DNA of 64,000 nucleotides from an uncultured Alphaproteobacteria bacterium. GTDB taxonomy: Bacteria; Pseudomonadota; Alphaproteobacteria; HIMB59. The stretch spans positions 1-64,000 of the forward strand of contig CACGPU010000006.1 in NCBI GenBank assembly GCA_902575065.1, read 5' to 3'. The position numbers and the translations under genes were made by a program. Positions 11,370-17,718 of the stretch are shown in pieces (the first letter of the stretch is position 1; every line of letters starts with the position of its first letter). The notes under the pieces are model-generated. The model had not been told where the DNA came from, did no database searches, and was given only the letters and a program-made list of their open reading frames with translations.

Positions 11370-11551
11370 TTAAAATAATTACTTTAGAGATTGGTAATTC
11401 ATCTTGGTGGAAAAATAAAAAATACAGAAAAGAGGCCTCTATAGAGTTAAGAAAACTAAGAAATAAATATAAGTCAGTAAGAGTTGTAAAAAAATATAGA
11501 CTAAACAGTAGTAATACAATTATATACGGTGATTATGCTTTAAAAAATTAA
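11366..11551 (+). CDS. small basic protein of unknown function
   Basis: A 61-residue basic protein (EIGNSSWWKNKKYRKEASIE, then ELRKLRNKYKS). It is soluble, with no signal or membrane segment, and is translationally coupled to the YqaA-like gene by an ATGA overlap. The coupling and the Trp/Tyr-containing composition argue for a real protein. I recognise no family. Convergent with the Cys-rich gene that ends 13 bases away. Confidence 0.5.
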   Translation: MIKIITLEIGNSSWWKNKKYRKEASIELRKLRNKYKSVRVVKKYRLNSSNTIIYGDYALKN

Positions 11552-11564
11552 TTTTTTTGTAAAG

Positions 11565-12299
11565 TTATTTGGATAGCTTTATAAATATATCACCCATCCC
11601 AGAAATAAGCTCCTCTTCTTTAGTAGAATTTCTAATCTTACATTGTTGCCCAACTACAGGGTGGTTGTTAATTGCTAAAAGATCACTGCTATTACAACTA
11701 GTTGGTTTGTGCAATAAGCCAATTATCATTTTTTGATCAACTGCAAAGACTTGATCTAAATTCATCTTTTCACCAATACAAAAATAATCTCGATTTACCT
11801 CAAGTGGAAATTCCTCTTTACCACAGGGGTTATCAATAGTCATAACAGTAAATTTTTCTTCAATACCTTGAAATTTATGTGATATTTCCATAGCTTTTGC
11901 ATATTTCATTGAATCACAAACACATGGCCAACAACAGCGATACATATCACCACATACTTTATTACCCGAGTCGACCTCACTCATACTTATAAATGCAGGC
12001 TCAGATCCAGGAGCTATCAATGAACCAGATACTGGGCAATATCTTTTATTGAATTCAACAAAATCGTCAAAACTAAGGTCTTGATCTATAAGATATTTAA
12101 AAAACTTTGGTCCTGCAGCATTCCTATTTCCATCAGGAAATATATTAATCCAGTTTTCGGCAAGTATATCATAGTAGTAAGCTTCATTTTTTGTAATTTC
12201 AGTAGAGTAAGAATTTTTATTAGCAATCAATACAAGTAAGATAGTGATAACAGCTAAAATGATATTATTTTTAATAAAAGTTATAAGTTTTATATACAT
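11565..12299 (-). CDS. membrane-anchored or secreted Cys-rich protein, unknown function
   Basis: A 244-residue protein with an N-terminal hydrophobic helix (FIKNNIILAVITILLVLIA), either an uncleaved anchor or signal sequence, and a periplasmic part with ten cysteines. Five of these cluster in the stretch VCGDMYRCCWPCVCD, which contains a CWPC (CxxC) pair reminiscent of redox or metal sites; the others lie in YCPVS, NPCG, YFCIG, TSCN and QQCK. I chose the ATG at 12299; a TTG five codons upstream is the alternative. It is divergent from the FG-GAP/ASPIC gene with about 58 bases between. A thioredoxin-like or metal-binding role is possible but not shown. Confidence 0.65.
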   Translation of the reverse strand: MYIKLITFIKNNIILAVITILLVLIANKNSYSTEITKNEAYYYDILAENWINIFPDGNRNAAGPKFFKYLIDQDLSFDDFVEFNKRYCPVSGSLIAPGSEPAFISMSEVDSGNKVCGDMYRCCWPCVCDSMKYAKAMEISHKFQGIEEKFTVMTIDNPCGKEEFPLEVNRDYFCIGEKMNLDQVFAVDQKMIIGLLHKPTSCNSSDLLAINNHPVVGQQCKIRNSTKEEELISGMGDIFIKLSK

Positions 12300-12357
12300 T
12301 TGATAGTGGTACAAATCATATCTAAATCTAGATCATCAAAAAAATAGTATTAATTAT

Positions 12358-13794
12358 ATGAAATTTTATAAAATTCCGTTTTTATTTTTATTTATTTTTT
12401 ATTCTATGAATGTATTTGCAGAAAAAACCTTTTTCAAAAATATAAGTAATTTATTACCTGATCAAAGTGCTAGACTAAGTTACGGGGTGGCTGTAACCGA
12501 TTTTGACAATGACGGCAATGATGAATTTATAGTAACTGGATTTAGATATAATAATCTAGCATTAGGTTTTAATGGAGAAACTCTTGAAAATAAAATTACT
12601 GAAAATATATTTTCTGATCCAGAAAGATCTACAATTGGGGTTGCTGCATGCGATATAGATAAAGATGGCTCTGAGGAAATATATTTCCTCAACACAGATA
12701 CATACAGTGGGATGAAAATGTACTCAGACAGGCTTTTAATAAATTCGCAGGGTGCAATAGAGGACTTATTTGAAAAAAAAATTAATCAAAGTGAATTGAA
12801 TTTAACAGCTGGAAGATCAGTAGTTTGCGTCGACAGAGAGGGTAAAGGAAATTATGGAATTTATGTAGCAAATTATGGTGGTCCAACAAGACTCTATGAG
12901 TTTATTAATAATAGGGTTGTAGATCTAGCTGCGAGCCTGGGACTTGATAAAGTTACAGGAGGTAGAGCTGTAGTTGCTGGTCATATCTTATCTGATCAAA
13001 TAGATGTGTTTGCAGCTAATGAAAGAGGTCCGAATTTTCTTTATTTTAATCAAAACGGAAAGTATTCAGATGTCGCGAGTCAAATGAATGTCAAAGATAT
13101 CTATCAAAATGGAAGGGGGACAGCATTATCTGATATTCTTTATCGAGGAAGACTTGATATTCTAAACGGTAATTGGGAGGGTTTTAATAGAGCCTACGTT
13201 TTAGATAACGATAAATTTAAAAACATTGCTAACTCTACTTTTGAAGAGCCATCAAAAATTAGAACAGTAATCTCGGCGGATTTTGATAATGATGGTTATG
13301 ATGAGGTATTTTTGAATAATATAGGTCAACCAAATAGACTTTATAAAATAATTGAAAACGGTGAATTTAAAGAAATTAAATTAAAACAAGCTCTAGAGCC
13401 AAATGGTCTTGGAACGGGAGCGGCAGTTGCAGATATAGATAATGATGGGGTACTGGAGCTCCTTTTATCTCATGGAGAGTCCGGCGCTCAACCATTGTCT
13501 CTATTTAAATACCACAATGATGAGAAAAGATCTTTTTTAAGAATTAGACCTTTAAATATACATGGTGCACCAGCTAGAGGAGCTACAGTAACTCTTTACA
13601 CAAATGAAAGAACACATTCAAAAACAATTGATGCCGGATCAGGTTATCTGTGCCAAATGGAACCAGTTGCTCACTATGGAATCAGAGATAATGAAAATGA
13701 GTTTAAGATTAAAATTAAATGGACTAATGGGGATGAGGAACTATTAGAAGTTGAAAATTTAAATCAGACAATTGTTGTGAAGCAAAAGATTTAA
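12358..13794 (+). CDS. secreted FG-GAP/VCBS repeat protein with C-terminal ASPIC/UnbV domain
   Basis: A 478-residue exported protein. A signal peptide is clear (residues 1-21, ending NVFA). Several FG-GAP repeats with the Ca-binding DxDxDG-like pattern follow: DFDNDGND near residue 47, CDIDKDGSEE, DFDNDGYDE and DIDNDGVLE, consistent with an integrin-like beta-propeller. The C-terminal 80 residues (GAPARGATVTLYT, then IDAGSGYLCQMEP and KIKWTNGD) match the ASPIC/UnbV domain of CRTAC1-like proteins. Such proteins are extracellular or surface-bound and often calcium-binding. The partner is unknown. It is followed three bases later by the convergent stop of the ATP-grasp gene. Confidence 0.85.
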   Translation: MKFYKIPFLFLFIFYSMNVFAEKTFFKNISNLLPDQSARLSYGVAVTDFDNDGNDEFIVTGFRYNNLALGFNGETLENKITENIFSDPERSTIGVAACDIDKDGSEEIYFLNTDTYSGMKMYSDRLLINSQGAIEDLFEKKINQSELNLTAGRSVVCVDREGKGNYGIYVANYGGPTRLYEFINNRVVDLAASLGLDKVTGGRAVVAGHILSDQIDVFAANERGPNFLYFNQNGKYSDVASQMNVKDIYQNGRGTALSDILYRGRLDILNGNWEGFNRAYVLDNDKFKNIANSTFEEPSKIRTVISADFDNDGYDEVFLNNIGQPNRLYKIIENGEFKEIKLKQALEPNGLGTGAAVADIDNDGVLELLLSHGESGAQPLSLFKYHNDEKRSFLRIRPLNIHGAPARGATVTLYTNERTHSKTIDAGSGYLCQMEPVAHYGIRDNENEFKIKIKWTNGDEELLEVENLNQTIVVKQKI

Positions 13795-13797
13795 AAT

Positions 13798-15243
13798 TTA
13801 ATCCTCTACAATCATAGTGTCTTTTGACCCTCCACCCTGCGAACTATTAACTATCGTACTTCCTTTTTTAAGAGCAACTCTCGTCAAACCACCCATAGTC
13901 ACGTATGTCTCTCTACCAGAAAGAATAAATGGCCGTAAATCTTGATGTCGAGGTTCAATTAAATTCCCCTGCAAAGTTGGGGTAGTTGATAATATTTCTA
14001 AAGGTTGAGCTATAAAGTTTCTTGGGTTATGTAAAATTTTTCTAATATATGCCTCTCTCTCAGATTTAGAGGATTTAGGTCCTACTATAATTCCATAACC
14101 ACCAGATCCATCAGCTGGTTTTACTATCATTTTTGAAATATTAGATATTACGTGATCTCTCTCGGATTTATTGTGACATAAATATGTCTCTACTTGATCC
14201 AATTTTGGCTCTTCATCTAAATAATATTTAATTATTTTAGGAACATATGAGTAAATAACCTTATCATCTGCTACCCCACTTCCAGGTGCATTTAGAAGTC
14301 CAACATTGCCTTTTCTATAAGATTTGTATAAACCCGCTACGCCTAACAAAGATCCTTTAAAAAAAGTTTTGGGATCTAAAAAAGTATCATCAATCCTTCT
14401 ATATATGCAATCAACTCTTAAACCCCCTTTGACAGTCTTTACATAAACTTTGTCATTTTCGACATAAAGATCTTTTCCCTCAACAAGAGCAATTCCCATT
14501 TGCTGTGCTAAAAATGAATGTTCGAAGTATGCAGAGTTATAAACACCTGGTGTTAATACAACCATTGTTGGATTATTTTTTTTATAAGGTATTGCATCTA
14601 ACATACAATGATAGAGTCTATTACAATAGTGATTGATCGGTGAGACTCTATAACGCGTAAATAACTCAGGAAATACCTCCCCCATTACCATTCTATTTTC
14701 AAGCATATATGAAACACCTGATGGTACACGAAGATTATCTTCTAACACTAAAAATTTTCCATCAATGTTTCTAATTAAATCTATTCCTGAAATGTGAGAC
14801 CATATCTTTTTTTTTGGATGAAAACCCTCACATTGTTTTAGATAATTTTGAGATTTAAATACTAATTCTTTTGGAACAATATTGTCTTTAAATATTTTTT
14901 TTTGATTATAGACATCATTAATAAATAGATTTAATGCTTTACACCTTTGTATTAACCCTTTTCTCACCTTAAGCCATTGGGATTTGAGAATAATCCTTGG
15001 AATAATATCCAATGGCCATTTTTTTTCTTCTGCAGCTTTTTTATCTGCTGAGTAAACTTTAAAATTAATACCGCGAGAACTTATTGTGCTTTGACAATTT
15101 TGTTCAATTCTTTCTAAATCTTTGATTGAGTAACTATTTAATATTTTAGAAATTACTTTAGCTTCTTTTCTTAGACTTTTTTCAGGTGTTAAATACTCAT
15201 CATAGCTATTTTTTGAATTGTAATTTTTCCAATTTATGCTCAC
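13798..15243 (-). CDS. circularly permuted type-2 ATP-grasp protein
   Basis: A 481-residue member of the DUF404/DUF407 circularly permuted ATP-grasp group, predicted to form amide bonds on peptide-like substrates. Visible features are LVLEDNLRVPSGVSYMLENR, a D-cluster near VDCIYRRIDD, NAPGSGVADDK and the nucleotide loop KPADGSGGYGIIVG with QDLRPFI. In many bacteria this gene stands in an operon with an alpha-E (DUF403) protein, a transglutaminase-like protease and the Anbu peptidase. Here only the divergent Anbu gene is present, 105 bases away. Soluble, full length. Confidence 0.88.
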   Translation of the reverse strand: MSINWKNYNSKNSYDEYLTPEKSLRKEAKVISKILNSYSIKDLERIEQNCQSTISSRGINFKVYSADKKAAEEKKWPLDIIPRIILKSQWLKVRKGLIQRCKALNLFINDVYNQKKIFKDNIVPKELVFKSQNYLKQCEGFHPKKKIWSHISGIDLIRNIDGKFLVLEDNLRVPSGVSYMLENRMVMGEVFPELFTRYRVSPINHYCNRLYHCMLDAIPYKKNNPTMVVLTPGVYNSAYFEHSFLAQQMGIALVEGKDLYVENDKVYVKTVKGGLRVDCIYRRIDDTFLDPKTFFKGSLLGVAGLYKSYRKGNVGLLNAPGSGVADDKVIYSYVPKIIKYYLDEEPKLDQVETYLCHNKSERDHVISNISKMIVKPADGSGGYGIIVGPKSSKSEREAYIRKILHNPRNFIAQPLEILSTTPTLQGNLIEPRHQDLRPFILSGRETYVTMGGLTRVALKKGSTIVNSSQGGGSKDTMIVED

Positions 15244-15348
15244 TGTGTAAAAATACTATAAATGCCTATTAGTAGTTATGCATAGTTTAGATTGAAGGTA
15301 TGTAAATATTCGTTTGTATTTTTGAAAAATTAGCTATTTAATTAAAAT

Positions 15349-16077
15349 GTGACTTATTGTGTAGGAATAAAAGTAAATGAGGGGATGGTTTTTGCATCTG
15401 ATAGGAGAACAAATGCTGGCCTAGATAACTTTAACTCTTATTCTAAAATGTATGTCCACAAGGGTGTCAATAGAAATATAATAATTTTAACTTCAGGAAA
15501 TTTAGCTACTTCTCAAGCAGTATTTAACTCGATTGCTAAAGATTTAGAAGACGATAAAAATGGGAATAATTTAAATAATTTATTTAATTTAAATGAAATC
15601 GCAAAATACATTGGGAGATTGAATGTTAAACATTCCTCACCAGATGGTATCAATCAAGAGACTATTGAGTTAGGTTCAACTTTTATAGTTGGTGGACATA
15701 TAAAAGATCAAGAGTCAGAATTATATTTGGTATACCCGCAGGGTAACTTTATTAAATCAAGTGAATTCAAACCTTATCTTGTCATTGGAGAAATAAAGTA
15801 TGGTAAGCCTATATTAGACAGAGTTGTTAAGTCAGACACATATCTTGGAGATGCAGCAAGATGTGCTTTAATAAGCATGGACAGTACAATGAAAGCAGAT
15901 TTATCTGTTGGTCCACCAATCGACTTAGTTGTATATAAAAATAACTTATCAAAAATAGTTTACCAACAATCTCTTGAAATTAATGATGATGATTATCAAT
16001 ACATTTCAAAACAATGGGAAAAAGGAATATTTGAAATTTTTAAATCTTTCGATCGTTTTAAATGGGAAGATAAATAG
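15349..16077 (+). CDS. Anbu proteasome-type peptidase
   Basis: A 242-residue Ntn-hydrolase of the proteasome-like Anbu (ancestral beta subunit) group. It begins MTYCVGIKVNEG; Thr2 becomes the N-terminal nucleophile after Met removal, and SDRRTNAG and YSKMYVH supply the conserved Asp and Lys. The GTG start is chosen because it places Thr at position 2 as in the family. Anbu assembles into open helical or ring oligomers, and its physiological substrate is unknown. It is commonly linked to ATP-grasp, alpha-E and transglutaminase genes thought to make and break a peptide product. The divergent ATP-grasp gene fits that; the other two partners are missing locally. A small membrane protein gene begins directly after the stop. 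Confidence 0.9.
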   Translation: MTYCVGIKVNEGMVFASDRRTNAGLDNFNSYSKMYVHKGVNRNIIILTSGNLATSQAVFNSIAKDLEDDKNGNNLNNLFNLNEIAKYIGRLNVKHSSPDGINQETIELGSTFIVGGHIKDQESELYLVYPQGNFIKSSEFKPYLVIGEIKYGKPILDRVVKSDTYLGDAARCALISMDSTMKADLSVGPPIDLVVYKNNLSKIVYQQSLEINDDDYQYISKQWEKGIFEIFKSFDRFKWEDK

Positions 16078-16236
16078 ATGGAACCCTCTCCATTTGTAGC
16101 TAACTTATCAAGTATTATTGTAATCAGTCTTGCCTTGATCTCCTTTTATTTGATAGCTAGAAAAAAAGGTAAATACGTTGATATTTTATTTGGATTTATT
16201 TTAGCGATAATATTTCTTTTAAAAATGATATACTAA
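16078..16236 (+). CDS. 52-residue membrane protein directly after Anbu
   Basis: The ATG follows the Anbu TAG with no gap. The 52-residue product has two hydrophobic helices (about residues 12-27 and 35-51) separated by a basic loop ARKKGKY, so both ends are probably outside the cytoplasm by the positive-inside rule. No family is recognised. Immediate adjacency to Anbu suggests co-translation and a possible membrane link for it, which is inference only. Confidence 0.5.
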   Translation: MEPSPFVANLSSIIVISLALISFYLIARKKGKYVDILFGFILAIIFLLKMIY

Positions 16237-16240
16237 AAAT

Positions 16241-16522
16241 ATGAAATTTTTTTTTATTCTTTTTTTATTTGTCCCGCAAAGTTTGTTAAGTTTTTGTTAC
16301 GAGCCCTCACCTCCTTGGTCCAAACCCTCTAAACCAATGGTGCCGTGGTGTGTAGATGAGTGGACAAATACTCACACATGTAGTGATTGGGAAATTGACA
16401 ATTACAATTATGAAGTCCAAAATTACAATTATGAAGTCCAAAATTACGTCTACGAACTACAAAATTATTTATATGAAGCAGAAGATTATGTTAACTGCGA
16501 AATTAATAGCCTAAATTACTAA
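16241..16522 (+). CDS. small secreted heptad-repeat protein
   Basis: A 93-residue protein with a cleavable signal peptide (MKFFFILFLFVPQSLLSF), a Trp/Pro-rich segment with three cysteines (CYEPSPPW, PWCVDEW, HTCSDWE), then four 7-residue units (residues 54-81) of the form NYxYEhx: NYNYEVQ twice, NYVYELQ and NYLYEAE, ending DYVNCEI. The regular spacing of Tyr and aliphatic residues suggests an amphipathic helix or coiled coil. It starts 4 bases after the preceding membrane-protein gene, so it is probably part of the Anbu transcript. No family is recognised; a signal peptide plus internal repetition argues it is real. Confidence 0.6.
   Translation: MKFFFILFLFVPQSLLSFCYEPSPPWSKPSKPMVPWCVDEWTNTHTCSDWEIDNYNYEVQNYNYEVQNYVYELQNYLYEAEDYVNCEINSLNY
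16400..16483 (+). repeat. tandem 21-bp repeat inside the heptad-repeat gene
   Basis: Four consecutive 21-base units. The first two (16400-16420 and 16421-16441) are identical; the third and fourth have diverged mostly in ways that keep the Asn-Tyr-x-Tyr-Glu pattern. Unit length is a multiple of three, so copy-number change keeps the frame. The identical pair suggests recent duplication. Confidence 0.85.
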
Positions 16523-16525
16523 GCC

Positions 16526-16606
16526 TCAAGAACAGCATCCTTCACCGCAAGTGCAACAACATGAGCAAGAACAACCACAGTCAGGTTTTGGTTTATTATT
16601 ATCCAT
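16526..16606 (-). CDS. 26-residue cysteine-rich peptide, metallothionein-like in composition
   Basis: A leftward 27-codon ORF opposite to its neighbours. Nine of the 26 residues are cysteine (positions 10, 12, 14, 16, 17, 18, 20, 24 and 25), in CxC, CCC and CC patterns spaced by Gly, Ser and Thr, after a short MDNNKPKP head. Such density is far above chance in a 30 % G+C genome, where Cys codons should be rare, and resembles metal-binding peptides. An in-frame stop four codons upstream limits the N terminus. I see no strong Shine-Dalgarno. It could alternatively be the antisense of a GC-richer noncoding segment. It is convergent with the heptad-repeat gene, three bases from its stop. Confidence 0.45.
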   Translation of the reverse strand: MDNNKPKPDCGCSCSCCCTCGEGCCS

Positions 16607-16696
16607 AGATATTAATTATCATCATTTTGAAATAACATCAACAATTTGAATTTAATTTGAAAAATAATTGTTTATTAGCTAAGTTTTTGGTGTTGA

Positions 16697-17308
16697 ATGA
16701 AATCTCTTCGTAAAGGTATTGGTAATAGAAAAGACGTTGAGAGCTATTATGACAACTGGGCTAGTTCATATGATAAGACATTGTATAAATGGAACTACAA
16801 AGCGCCATTGCAATCGGTTAATATCTTAAAAAAATATATTAAAACAAAACCAAAATTTATTTTAGATTTAGCATGTGGCACAGGACTTTTTATTCATGAA
16901 TTTTTAAAAGTATATCCTGATTGTATTTGTGATGGAGCAGATATTTCAGGAAAAATATTAGATTTATCCAAAAGAAATGGAAAATACAGATATCTTTATA
17001 AAAAGAGTTTCGAGAATAAAATCAAAATAACAAATAAGTACAACGTGGTAAGTCTTATTGGTGCAATGACATATTGTAACAATCATCAATCACTTTTTAA
17101 ACTGGTCTCTTATTACCTTTCAAAAAATGGTTATTTTATATTTACACACAGATTAGATTTATGGAGAAAATCTAAATTCGATAGCATCTTGGAGAAATTA
17201 ATTGATTTCGACTCGATCTATATATCAAGACCTTTAAACTACCTCCCAAAAAACGAAGATTTTGCTTCAGAAATTAAAATTAGGATAGTCTTATTAAAAA
17301 AGAAATAA
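16697..17308 (+). CDS. class I SAM-dependent methyltransferase
   Basis: A 203-residue Rossmann-fold methyltransferase. An N-terminal segment YYDNWASSYDKTLYKW precedes the SAM-binding motif I FILDLACGTGLF (about residues 54-66) and the acidic motif II residue in DGADISGKIL. The N-terminal pattern is typical of the Methyltransf_11/25 families that act on small molecules or tetrapyrrole/quinone-like acceptors; the substrate is unknown. It begins 174 bases after the heptad-repeat gene and is followed closely by two tiny membrane-protein genes. Confidence 0.82.
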   Translation: MKSLRKGIGNRKDVESYYDNWASSYDKTLYKWNYKAPLQSVNILKKYIKTKPKFILDLACGTGLFIHEFLKVYPDCICDGADISGKILDLSKRNGKYRYLYKKSFENKIKITNKYNVVSLIGAMTYCNNHQSLFKLVSYYLSKNGYFIFTHRLDLWRKSKFDSILEKLIDFDSIYISRPLNYLPKNEDFASEIKIRIVLLKKK

Positions 17309-17321
17309 TTAAAGTAAGAAA

Positions 17322-17510
17322 ATGATATGGGATATTATGTTTTGGTTGTTTTTAATCCCCTTAGCTATTTGGGGACTTCATAAATTATTTAAATACAGTG
17401 CTATTGGGATACCCTTTATTAGAAATAACAAAAAGCTTTATTGGGTATTTATGATTGGATTAGTCTTATTAATAAATTATCTGGTAGATAAGTTTTACCT
17501 TGTTAATTAA
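17322..17510 (+). CDS. 62-residue membrane protein, unknown
   Basis: Two hydrophobic segments (residues 3-19 and 42-58) flank a basic loop HKLFKYSA...RNNKKLYW. There is no known motif. It lies 13 bases after the methyltransferase and two bases before another two-helix protein of nearly the same size, which suggests a co-transcribed pair. Length and close spacing support a real gene. Confidence 0.5.
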   Translation: MIWDIMFWLFLIPLAIWGLHKLFKYSAIGIPFIRNNKKLYWVFMIGLVLLINYLVDKFYLVN

Positions 17511-17512
17511 TC

Positions 17513-17698
17513 ATGTCAGTTATTATTGAATTAACAAAAAACCCTAATTTAATGTGGTTTGTATCATTTGTTTTTTTGGCAATTACATTTGCTACATGGC
17601 GAGTGAGCCAAAATAATAATAAATGGAAAATTGTTTATGAAATCTCTAAATACCTGACAGCAGGGTGTCTTTTGATAATGTTTTTTAATATGTATTAA
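17513..17698 (+). CDS. 61-residue membrane protein, unknown
   Basis: Two predicted helices (about residues 13-28 and 44-60) separated by a polar loop SQNNNKWK. Its ATG lies two bases after the stop of the preceding small membrane protein. No family is recognised. tRNA-Thr begins 20 bases downstream, so the transcript may run into it or terminate before it; no terminator hairpin is evident. Confidence 0.5.
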   Translation: MSVIIELTKNPNLMWFVSFVFLAITFATWRVSQNNNKWKIVYEISKYLTAGCLLIMFFNMY

Positions 17699-17718
17699 TA
17701 GTCTATAATTTTAAAATT

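What the first reader, a model, noticed from the sequence alone, without database searches (positions are those of the whole stretch)
16526..16606. A 26-residue peptide with nine cysteines, metallothionein-like
The leftward ORF encodes Cys at residues 10, 12, 14, 16, 17, 18, 20, 24 and 25, in CxC, CCC and CC steps separated by Gly, Ser and Thr. In a roughly 30 % G+C genome that density is improbable by chance. It has a clean start, a stop four codons upstream and a stop at the end. The composition suggests metal sequestration or a peptide-derived product (inference). It lies beside small exported and membrane proteins in the Anbu neighbourhood.
Basis: seen in the sequence. Interest (0 to 1): 0.6.

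Follow-up and report, generated by a model that had tools for sequence, protein, structure and literature searches.

The report
Tiny conserved metallothionein-like peptide in HIMB59
A 26-residue peptide with nine cysteines, found in many genomes of what appears to be an abundant ocean bacterial order (HIMB59) and kept almost unchanged there, most likely soaks up zinc or copper inside cells that lack the usual pumps for exporting these metals.

Summary
It is found in 102 of 150 genomes of its order, in two families, and was not found in a convincing form elsewhere in the class or phylum samples. All nine cysteines are kept (CxCxCxCCCxC-x3/4-CC). In 24 distinct family-1 coding sequences, 21 of 25 third codon positions vary, against 2 of 25 at the first and 2 of 25 at the second, which shows strong purifying selection on the peptide. 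No Pfam, NCBIfam or PDB relative was found. The gene is a separate, probably self-promoted unit. In family 1 it sits in a 6-kb Anbu island. In family 2, with no Anbu found, it is always convergent with the zinc operon (ZnuA, COG0523, WD40, DUF1636). The order's genomes have ZnuABC and a Zur-like regulator, but essentially no CDF exporter, HMA domain or P-type ATPase. The best reading is a minimal metallothionein-like peptide that buffers cytosolic zinc (or copper) in cells that cannot pump it out, as proposed for BmtA in marine Synechococcus. Metal binding is not shown, and no Zur box precedes the gene. Anbu is not its partner in general.

The parts
16526..16606 (-). Gene for the 26-residue, 9-Cys peptide MDNNKPKPDCGCSCSCCCTCGEGCCS, including its TGA stop
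   Evidence: orthologues; purifying selection
16607..16696 (-). Upstream region shared with the divergent methyltransferase. Conserved in family 1 near TTGTAAT...AATGATAT just before the ATG. It may hold a promoter giving a very short or absent leader (inference); no Zur box
   Evidence: alignment; Zur-box scan; no above-chance sigma-70 match
11538..17718 (.). Island (Anbu, CP-ATP-grasp, FG-GAP protein, small ORFs, the peptide gene, methyltransferase). Absent from the complete same-genus genome G040, where the flanks lie 48 bp apart next to tRNA-Thr
16697..17308 (+). Divergent SAM-dependent methyltransferase. Not a constant neighbour: displaced by a SulP-like transporter plus another gene in G022 and G003
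16241..16522 (+). Convergent 93-aa apparently exported protein; its stop lies 3 bases from the peptide's stop. Absent next to the peptide in most relatives
15349..16077 (+). Anbu (proteasome-like) subunit, neighbour in family 1 only

Best explanation
The gene makes a minimal cytosolic metallothionein-like peptide. The unstructured N-terminus (M-D/K-N-x-x-P-x-P) carries no ligands; nine thiolates in CxC, CCC and CC steps, spaced only by Gly, Ser, Thr, Asp and Glu, wrap a small metal-thiolate cluster. From established metallothionein chemistry, nine Cys would fit about three Zn2+/Cd2+ (like the M3Cys9 beta-domain of mammalian MT) or four to six Cu+. It most likely buffers and stores zinc brought in by ZnuABC, and incidentally copper, in cells that cannot export these metals. 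Shown here: the gene is real, selected for its protein, order-specific in the samples searched, and its own transcription unit by gene order; in family 2 it is convergent with the zinc operon; exporters are absent from the genomes tested. Inferred: metal binding, which metal, cytosolic location, promoter and regulation.
For: 102 of 150 order genomes carry it, all cysteines kept in intact copies. Codon-position variability is 2/25, 2/25 and 21/25 in family 1 and 5/26, 3/26 and 16/26 in family 2; approximate omega is 0.10 and 0.15. There is no His, aromatic residue or signal peptide, and 35 % Cys. In all 21 family-2 loci read (17 genomes), the neighbouring operon, convergent with the peptide gene, is znuA or znuA-COG0523-WD40-84aa(-DUF1636), although the other flank changes from pirin to MurJ-TrpS. 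No CDF exporter in 29 of 31 genomes (one good and one broken match), no HMA domain in 31, and no P-type ATPase in 18, while 13-14 of 14 control genomes have each. Marine Synechococcus WH8102, with no zinc-efflux orthologues found, pairs ZnuABC with the metallothionein BmtA to store zinc (PMC9337993).
Against: No metal binding, expression or phenotype data exist. There is no Zur box upstream of the peptide gene, although the znuA/znuC promoters of the same genomes have one, so zinc-responsive control is not indicated. The family-2 zinc adjacency is one ancestral arrangement, not many independent ones. Some members, including the complete genome G040, lack the peptide and, as far as tested, also lack exporters, so it is not essential. 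No hit to any known metallothionein model.
Confidence: 0.7

Rival explanations
1. It is a copper(I) or general thiol/redox buffer rather than a zinc peptide: a bacterial analogue of the short fungal copper thioneins.
For: Size and CxC-rich, His-free make-up match the 26-residue, 7-Cys Neurospora/Agaricus copper thioneins (PMC4755600). The CCC step is a feature of fungal family-IV MT, where all Cys, CCC included, bind Cu(I) (PMC13107397). No HMA domain or P-type ATPase in the order leaves copper unexported too.
Against: The only metal genes next to it are zinc genes. No copper gene was found beside it in either family.
Confidence: 0.2
2. It is a substrate or carrier peptide of the Anbu / CP-ATP-grasp system (a ribosomal peptide modified by the ATP-grasp and methyltransferase and trimmed by Anbu).
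For: In family 1 it lies in the Anbu island, and nine of the ten peptide-less genus genomes tested also lack Anbu (the tenth match runs into a contig end). The literature proposes that the Anbu operon is a peptide-synthesis system (PMC5666114).
Against: Family-2 genomes G030, G034 and G062 have the peptide but no CP-ATP-grasp. G025 has the peptide but no Anbu. G003 keeps the peptide with Anbu and ATP-grasp gone from the locus (this genome is 57 % complete). The methyltransferase is not constant. Co-absence is explained by loss of the whole island.
Confidence: 0.07
3. It is a cysteine- or metal-sensing leader peptide that controls a downstream gene by attenuation.
For: Short, Cys-rich, own promoter region.
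Against: The neighbour past its stop is convergent in the family-1 and family-2 regions examined, so there is no downstream gene to attenuate. No terminator-like hairpin was found. The protein sequence itself is conserved across two different contexts.
Confidence: 0.02
4. It is a chance ORF.
For: Only 26 codons; no annotation family.
Against: Conserved in two families with a strong third-position bias; shuffles never reach its Cys density.
Confidence: 0.01

Closest known systems
Bacterial metallothioneins (SmtA/BmtA, Pseudomonas MT; Pfam Metallothio_Pro type)
   Same: Small Cys-rich protein, proposed zinc buffer/store in a bacterium; the marine Synechococcus case combines ZnuABC, Zur, no zinc-efflux orthologues and an MT (PMC9337993).
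   Different: Known bacterial MTs are longer, carry His ligands and fold into a GATA-type zinc finger (PMC10612145). This peptide has 26-27 residues, no His, and no profile match.
Neurospora crassa / Agaricus copper thioneins (MT family 8)
   Same: 26 residues, CxC-rich, no His, small spacer residues (PMC4755600).
   Different: 7 Cys as X2-CXC-X5-CXC-X3-CXC-X2-C-X3, against 9 Cys as CxCxCxCCCxC-x3/4-CC here; no homology shown.
Fungal family-IV MT with CCC motif (Yarrowia lipolytica)
   Same: Has a CCC step; all its Cys, CCC included, bind Cu(I) (PMC13107397).
   Different: Longer, with an extended Cys-free N-terminal segment; eukaryotic; no detectable relation.

Membership tests
Metallothionein (general class definition) | Low molecular mass, very high Cys content in CxC/CC motifs | tested here: met
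   26 aa, 9 Cys (35 %), CxC x3, CCC, CC
Metallothionein (general class definition) | No aromatic residues and little or no His | tested here: met
   None in either family form
Metallothionein (general class definition) | Binds metal in thiolate clusters | not testable with these tools
   Needs native mass spectrometry or titration of the peptide
Metallothionein (general class definition) | Cys positions conserved by selection | tested here: met
   All nine Cys columns invariant in the ten forms aligned; strong third-position bias
Prokaryotic metallothionein family (SmtA/BmtA type) | Sequence-profile match | tested here: not met
   No Pfam or NCBIfam match up to E = 10; no PDB match. Very short queries limit sensitivity.
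Prokaryotic metallothionein family (SmtA/BmtA type) | His ligands and GATA-type zinc-finger fold | tested here: not met
   No His; too short for that fold
Zur regulon member | Zur box upstream | tested here: not met
   No match above the window background upstream of the peptide gene, while the znuA/znuC intergenic regions carry ATGTTATAATATAACAT-like boxes
Anbu-system component | Co-occurrence with Anbu and CP-ATP-grasp | tested here: not met
   Peptide without CP-ATP-grasp in family-2 genomes and G003; no Anbu in G025
Cys-rich leader peptide (attenuator) | Co-directional gene directly downstream | tested here: not met
   Convergent neighbour in the examined regions

The most novel reading that the evidence does not exclude
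The HIMB59 order replaced metal export entirely by buffering. A 26-residue, His-free peptide, which would be among the smallest metallothioneins reported, is its main zinc (or copper) sink and was carried between an Anbu island and the zinc-uptake locus, so these ocean bacteria bank trace metal rather than pump it out.
Probability: 0.35. Interest if true: 0.65.

Novelty: new variant of a known kind. Interest (0 to 1): 0.5.

Why it matters
It would be a metallothionein-type peptide family with no match in the libraries searched, about the size of the shortest metallothioneins known, in an abundant group of streamlined marine bacteria. It offers a simple testable answer to how cells with high-affinity zinc uptake and no recognised exporters avoid metal overload. 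It also shows that genes of this size, missed by the family libraries searched here, can be under strong selection.

Tried and rejected
A genome-wide pattern search for CxCxCxCCCxC and a viral-contig search returned nearly all poly-Cys low-complexity frames; only L045 (SAG AG-917-M17) was a true relative. The weak class- and phylum-level matches (E about 0.003-0.01) showed no comparable Cys-rich peptide where read, so they were treated as noise. Zur control was tested and not supported. A sigma-70 consensus scan gave nothing above chance. A general Anbu partnership was rejected, as were the leader-peptide reading and the chance-ORF reading. No phage record is similar at DNA level. Structure prediction was not run: a 26-residue metal-folded peptide without its metal would give a meaningless model.

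Full report
WHAT IS THERE. The window is 29.0 % G+C. No other open 16-residue stretch in it has nine Cys, and 60 dinucleotide-preserving shuffles of the whole window never exceeded six.

IT IS A GENE. A search of 40 related genomes found it in 28. A profile of its forms found it in 102 of 150 sampled genomes of the order, 36 in the window's own family and 66 in a second family. The second-family form is MKNQNPNPPKCGCSCSCCCTCEGGDCC: an extra residue on each side of the core cysteines, the same nine Cys. In 24 distinct family-1 coding sequences, 2/25, 2/25 and 21/25 codon positions (first, second, third) vary; in 12 distinct family-2 sequences, 5/26, 3/26 and 16/26. Approximate omega is 0.10 and 0.15. 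The binomial P values are about 6e-12 and 6e-6, but they ignore shared ancestry. Two family-2 genomes, G138 and G098, carry apparent single-base frameshifts, which may be assembly errors. Samples of 385 genomes of the class and 398 of the phylum gave no convincing further member.

TAXON. A true relative, L045, comes from a single-cell genome titled uncultured Alphaproteobacteria AG-917-M17, with the same gene neighbours. The order has at least two families here, and a complete same-genus genome of 1,410,127 bp in one contig (G040) fits strain HIMB59 from memory. The literature describes order HIMB59 with two families (PMC10734472). I therefore infer order HIMB59 (AEGEAN-169 / SAR11 subclade V).

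CONTEXT, FAMILY 1. The gene is convergent with the Anbu side and divergent from a methyltransferase. It lies in a block (about 11538-17718) that is missing from G040, where the flanking sequences lie 48 bp apart next to tRNA-Thr. Nine of ten peptide-less genus genomes lack Anbu as well; the tenth, G065, has Anbu at a contig end. Among peptide-bearing family-1 loci, every genome except G003 has Anbu beside it. The methyltransferase is displaced in G022 and G003, where two other genes, one a SulP-like transporter by eye, stand next to the peptide.

CONTEXT, FAMILY 2. No Anbu was found in G025, the peptide-bearing family-2 genome tested. In all 21 family-2 loci read, from 17 genomes, the peptide gene is convergent with an operon of znuA alone, or znuA, COG0523 (CobW-type), WD40, an 84-aa protein and sometimes DUF1636. 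znuC, znuB and a Fur-family (Zur-like) gene lie on the far side of znuA in the longer regions. The opposite flank is pirin in most and MurJ-TrpS in others, so the zinc side is the constant one. COG0523 proteins are a common part of Zur regulons (PMC6103462). This adjacency is a single inherited arrangement and counts as circumstantial evidence.

NOT A ZUR TARGET BY SEQUENCE. A palindromic box close to ATGTTATAATATAACAT lies between znuA and znuC in both families, but the peptide's upstream regions score no better than random window sequence. In family 1 a conserved block, TTGTAAT...AATGATAT, ends a few bases before the ATG. This would fit a promoter giving a leaderless or near-leaderless transcript, but the consensus scan did not exceed chance, so that is only a suggestion.

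METAL EXPORT IS MISSING. In 31 genomes of the order, CDF exporters were found in one, plus one broken weak match. HMA domains were found in none, and P-type ATPases in none of 18 tested. The same searches rang in 13-14 of 14 control genomes. ZnuA was found in ten of twelve genomes tested. RND exporters were not tested. The published parallel is marine Synechococcus WH8102, where no zinc-efflux orthologues were found and BmtA stores zinc taken up by ZnuABC (PMC9337993).

MECHANISM. The most likely reading is a minimal metallothionein: nine thiolates forming a small Zn/Cd or Cu(I) cluster that buffers and stores metal in the cytosol. Which metal is not settled. The gene neighbourhood favours zinc; the resemblance to the 26-residue fungal copper thioneins (PMC4755600) and to a CCC-containing MT in which all Cys bind copper (PMC13107397) keeps copper open. 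The Anbu-substrate reading is disfavoured because G030, G034 and G062 have the peptide but no CP-ATP-grasp found in their assemblies, and G003 has it with neither at the locus.

KNOWN OR NEW. No Pfam, NCBIfam or PDB sequence matches, and no held paper mentions metallothionein together with HIMB59. It meets the compositional definition of a metallothionein. It fails the features of the SmtA/BmtA family: profile match, His ligands, and a length that allows the zinc-finger fold (PMC10612145). I file it as a new variant of a known kind, working like a metallothionein, with metal binding still to be shown.

Noticed in passing
window 11538-17718; L358 (G040): The Anbu/CP-ATP-grasp block is a cleanly absent-or-present island between a 61-aa ORF and tRNA-Thr. 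In G040 the flanks are 48 bp apart; in G085 a different insert of about 770 bp lies there.
   Followed up: partly
genomes of the order: Near-complete absence of CDF exporters, HMA domains and P-type ATPases across the order, including members that lack the peptide.
   Followed up: partly
L364-L367 (G033, G037, G025, G028): Some family-2 genomes carry a CP-ATP-grasp protein although no Anbu was found in the one tested (G025).
   Followed up: no
window 16241-16522: A 93-aa apparently exported protein with a tandem heptad repeat (NYNYEVQ NYNYEVQ NYVYELQ NYLYEAE), present next to the peptide in only a few relatives.
   Followed up: no
L181:12442-13515, L182:10145-11284, L184:1227-2450: ZnuA of family 2 carries very long DHD-type His/Asp repeats that differ in length between genomes.
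   Followed up: no
L187:9189-9851 (G011): A TENA/THI-4 family gene is inserted between Anbu and the peptide gene, so the island's contents vary.
   Followed up: no
window 13798-16077: The Anbu gene lies near a CP-ATP-grasp gene, but no Alpha-E or transglutaminase gene, the other usual Anbu-operon members, was seen among the immediate neighbours examined.
   Followed up: no
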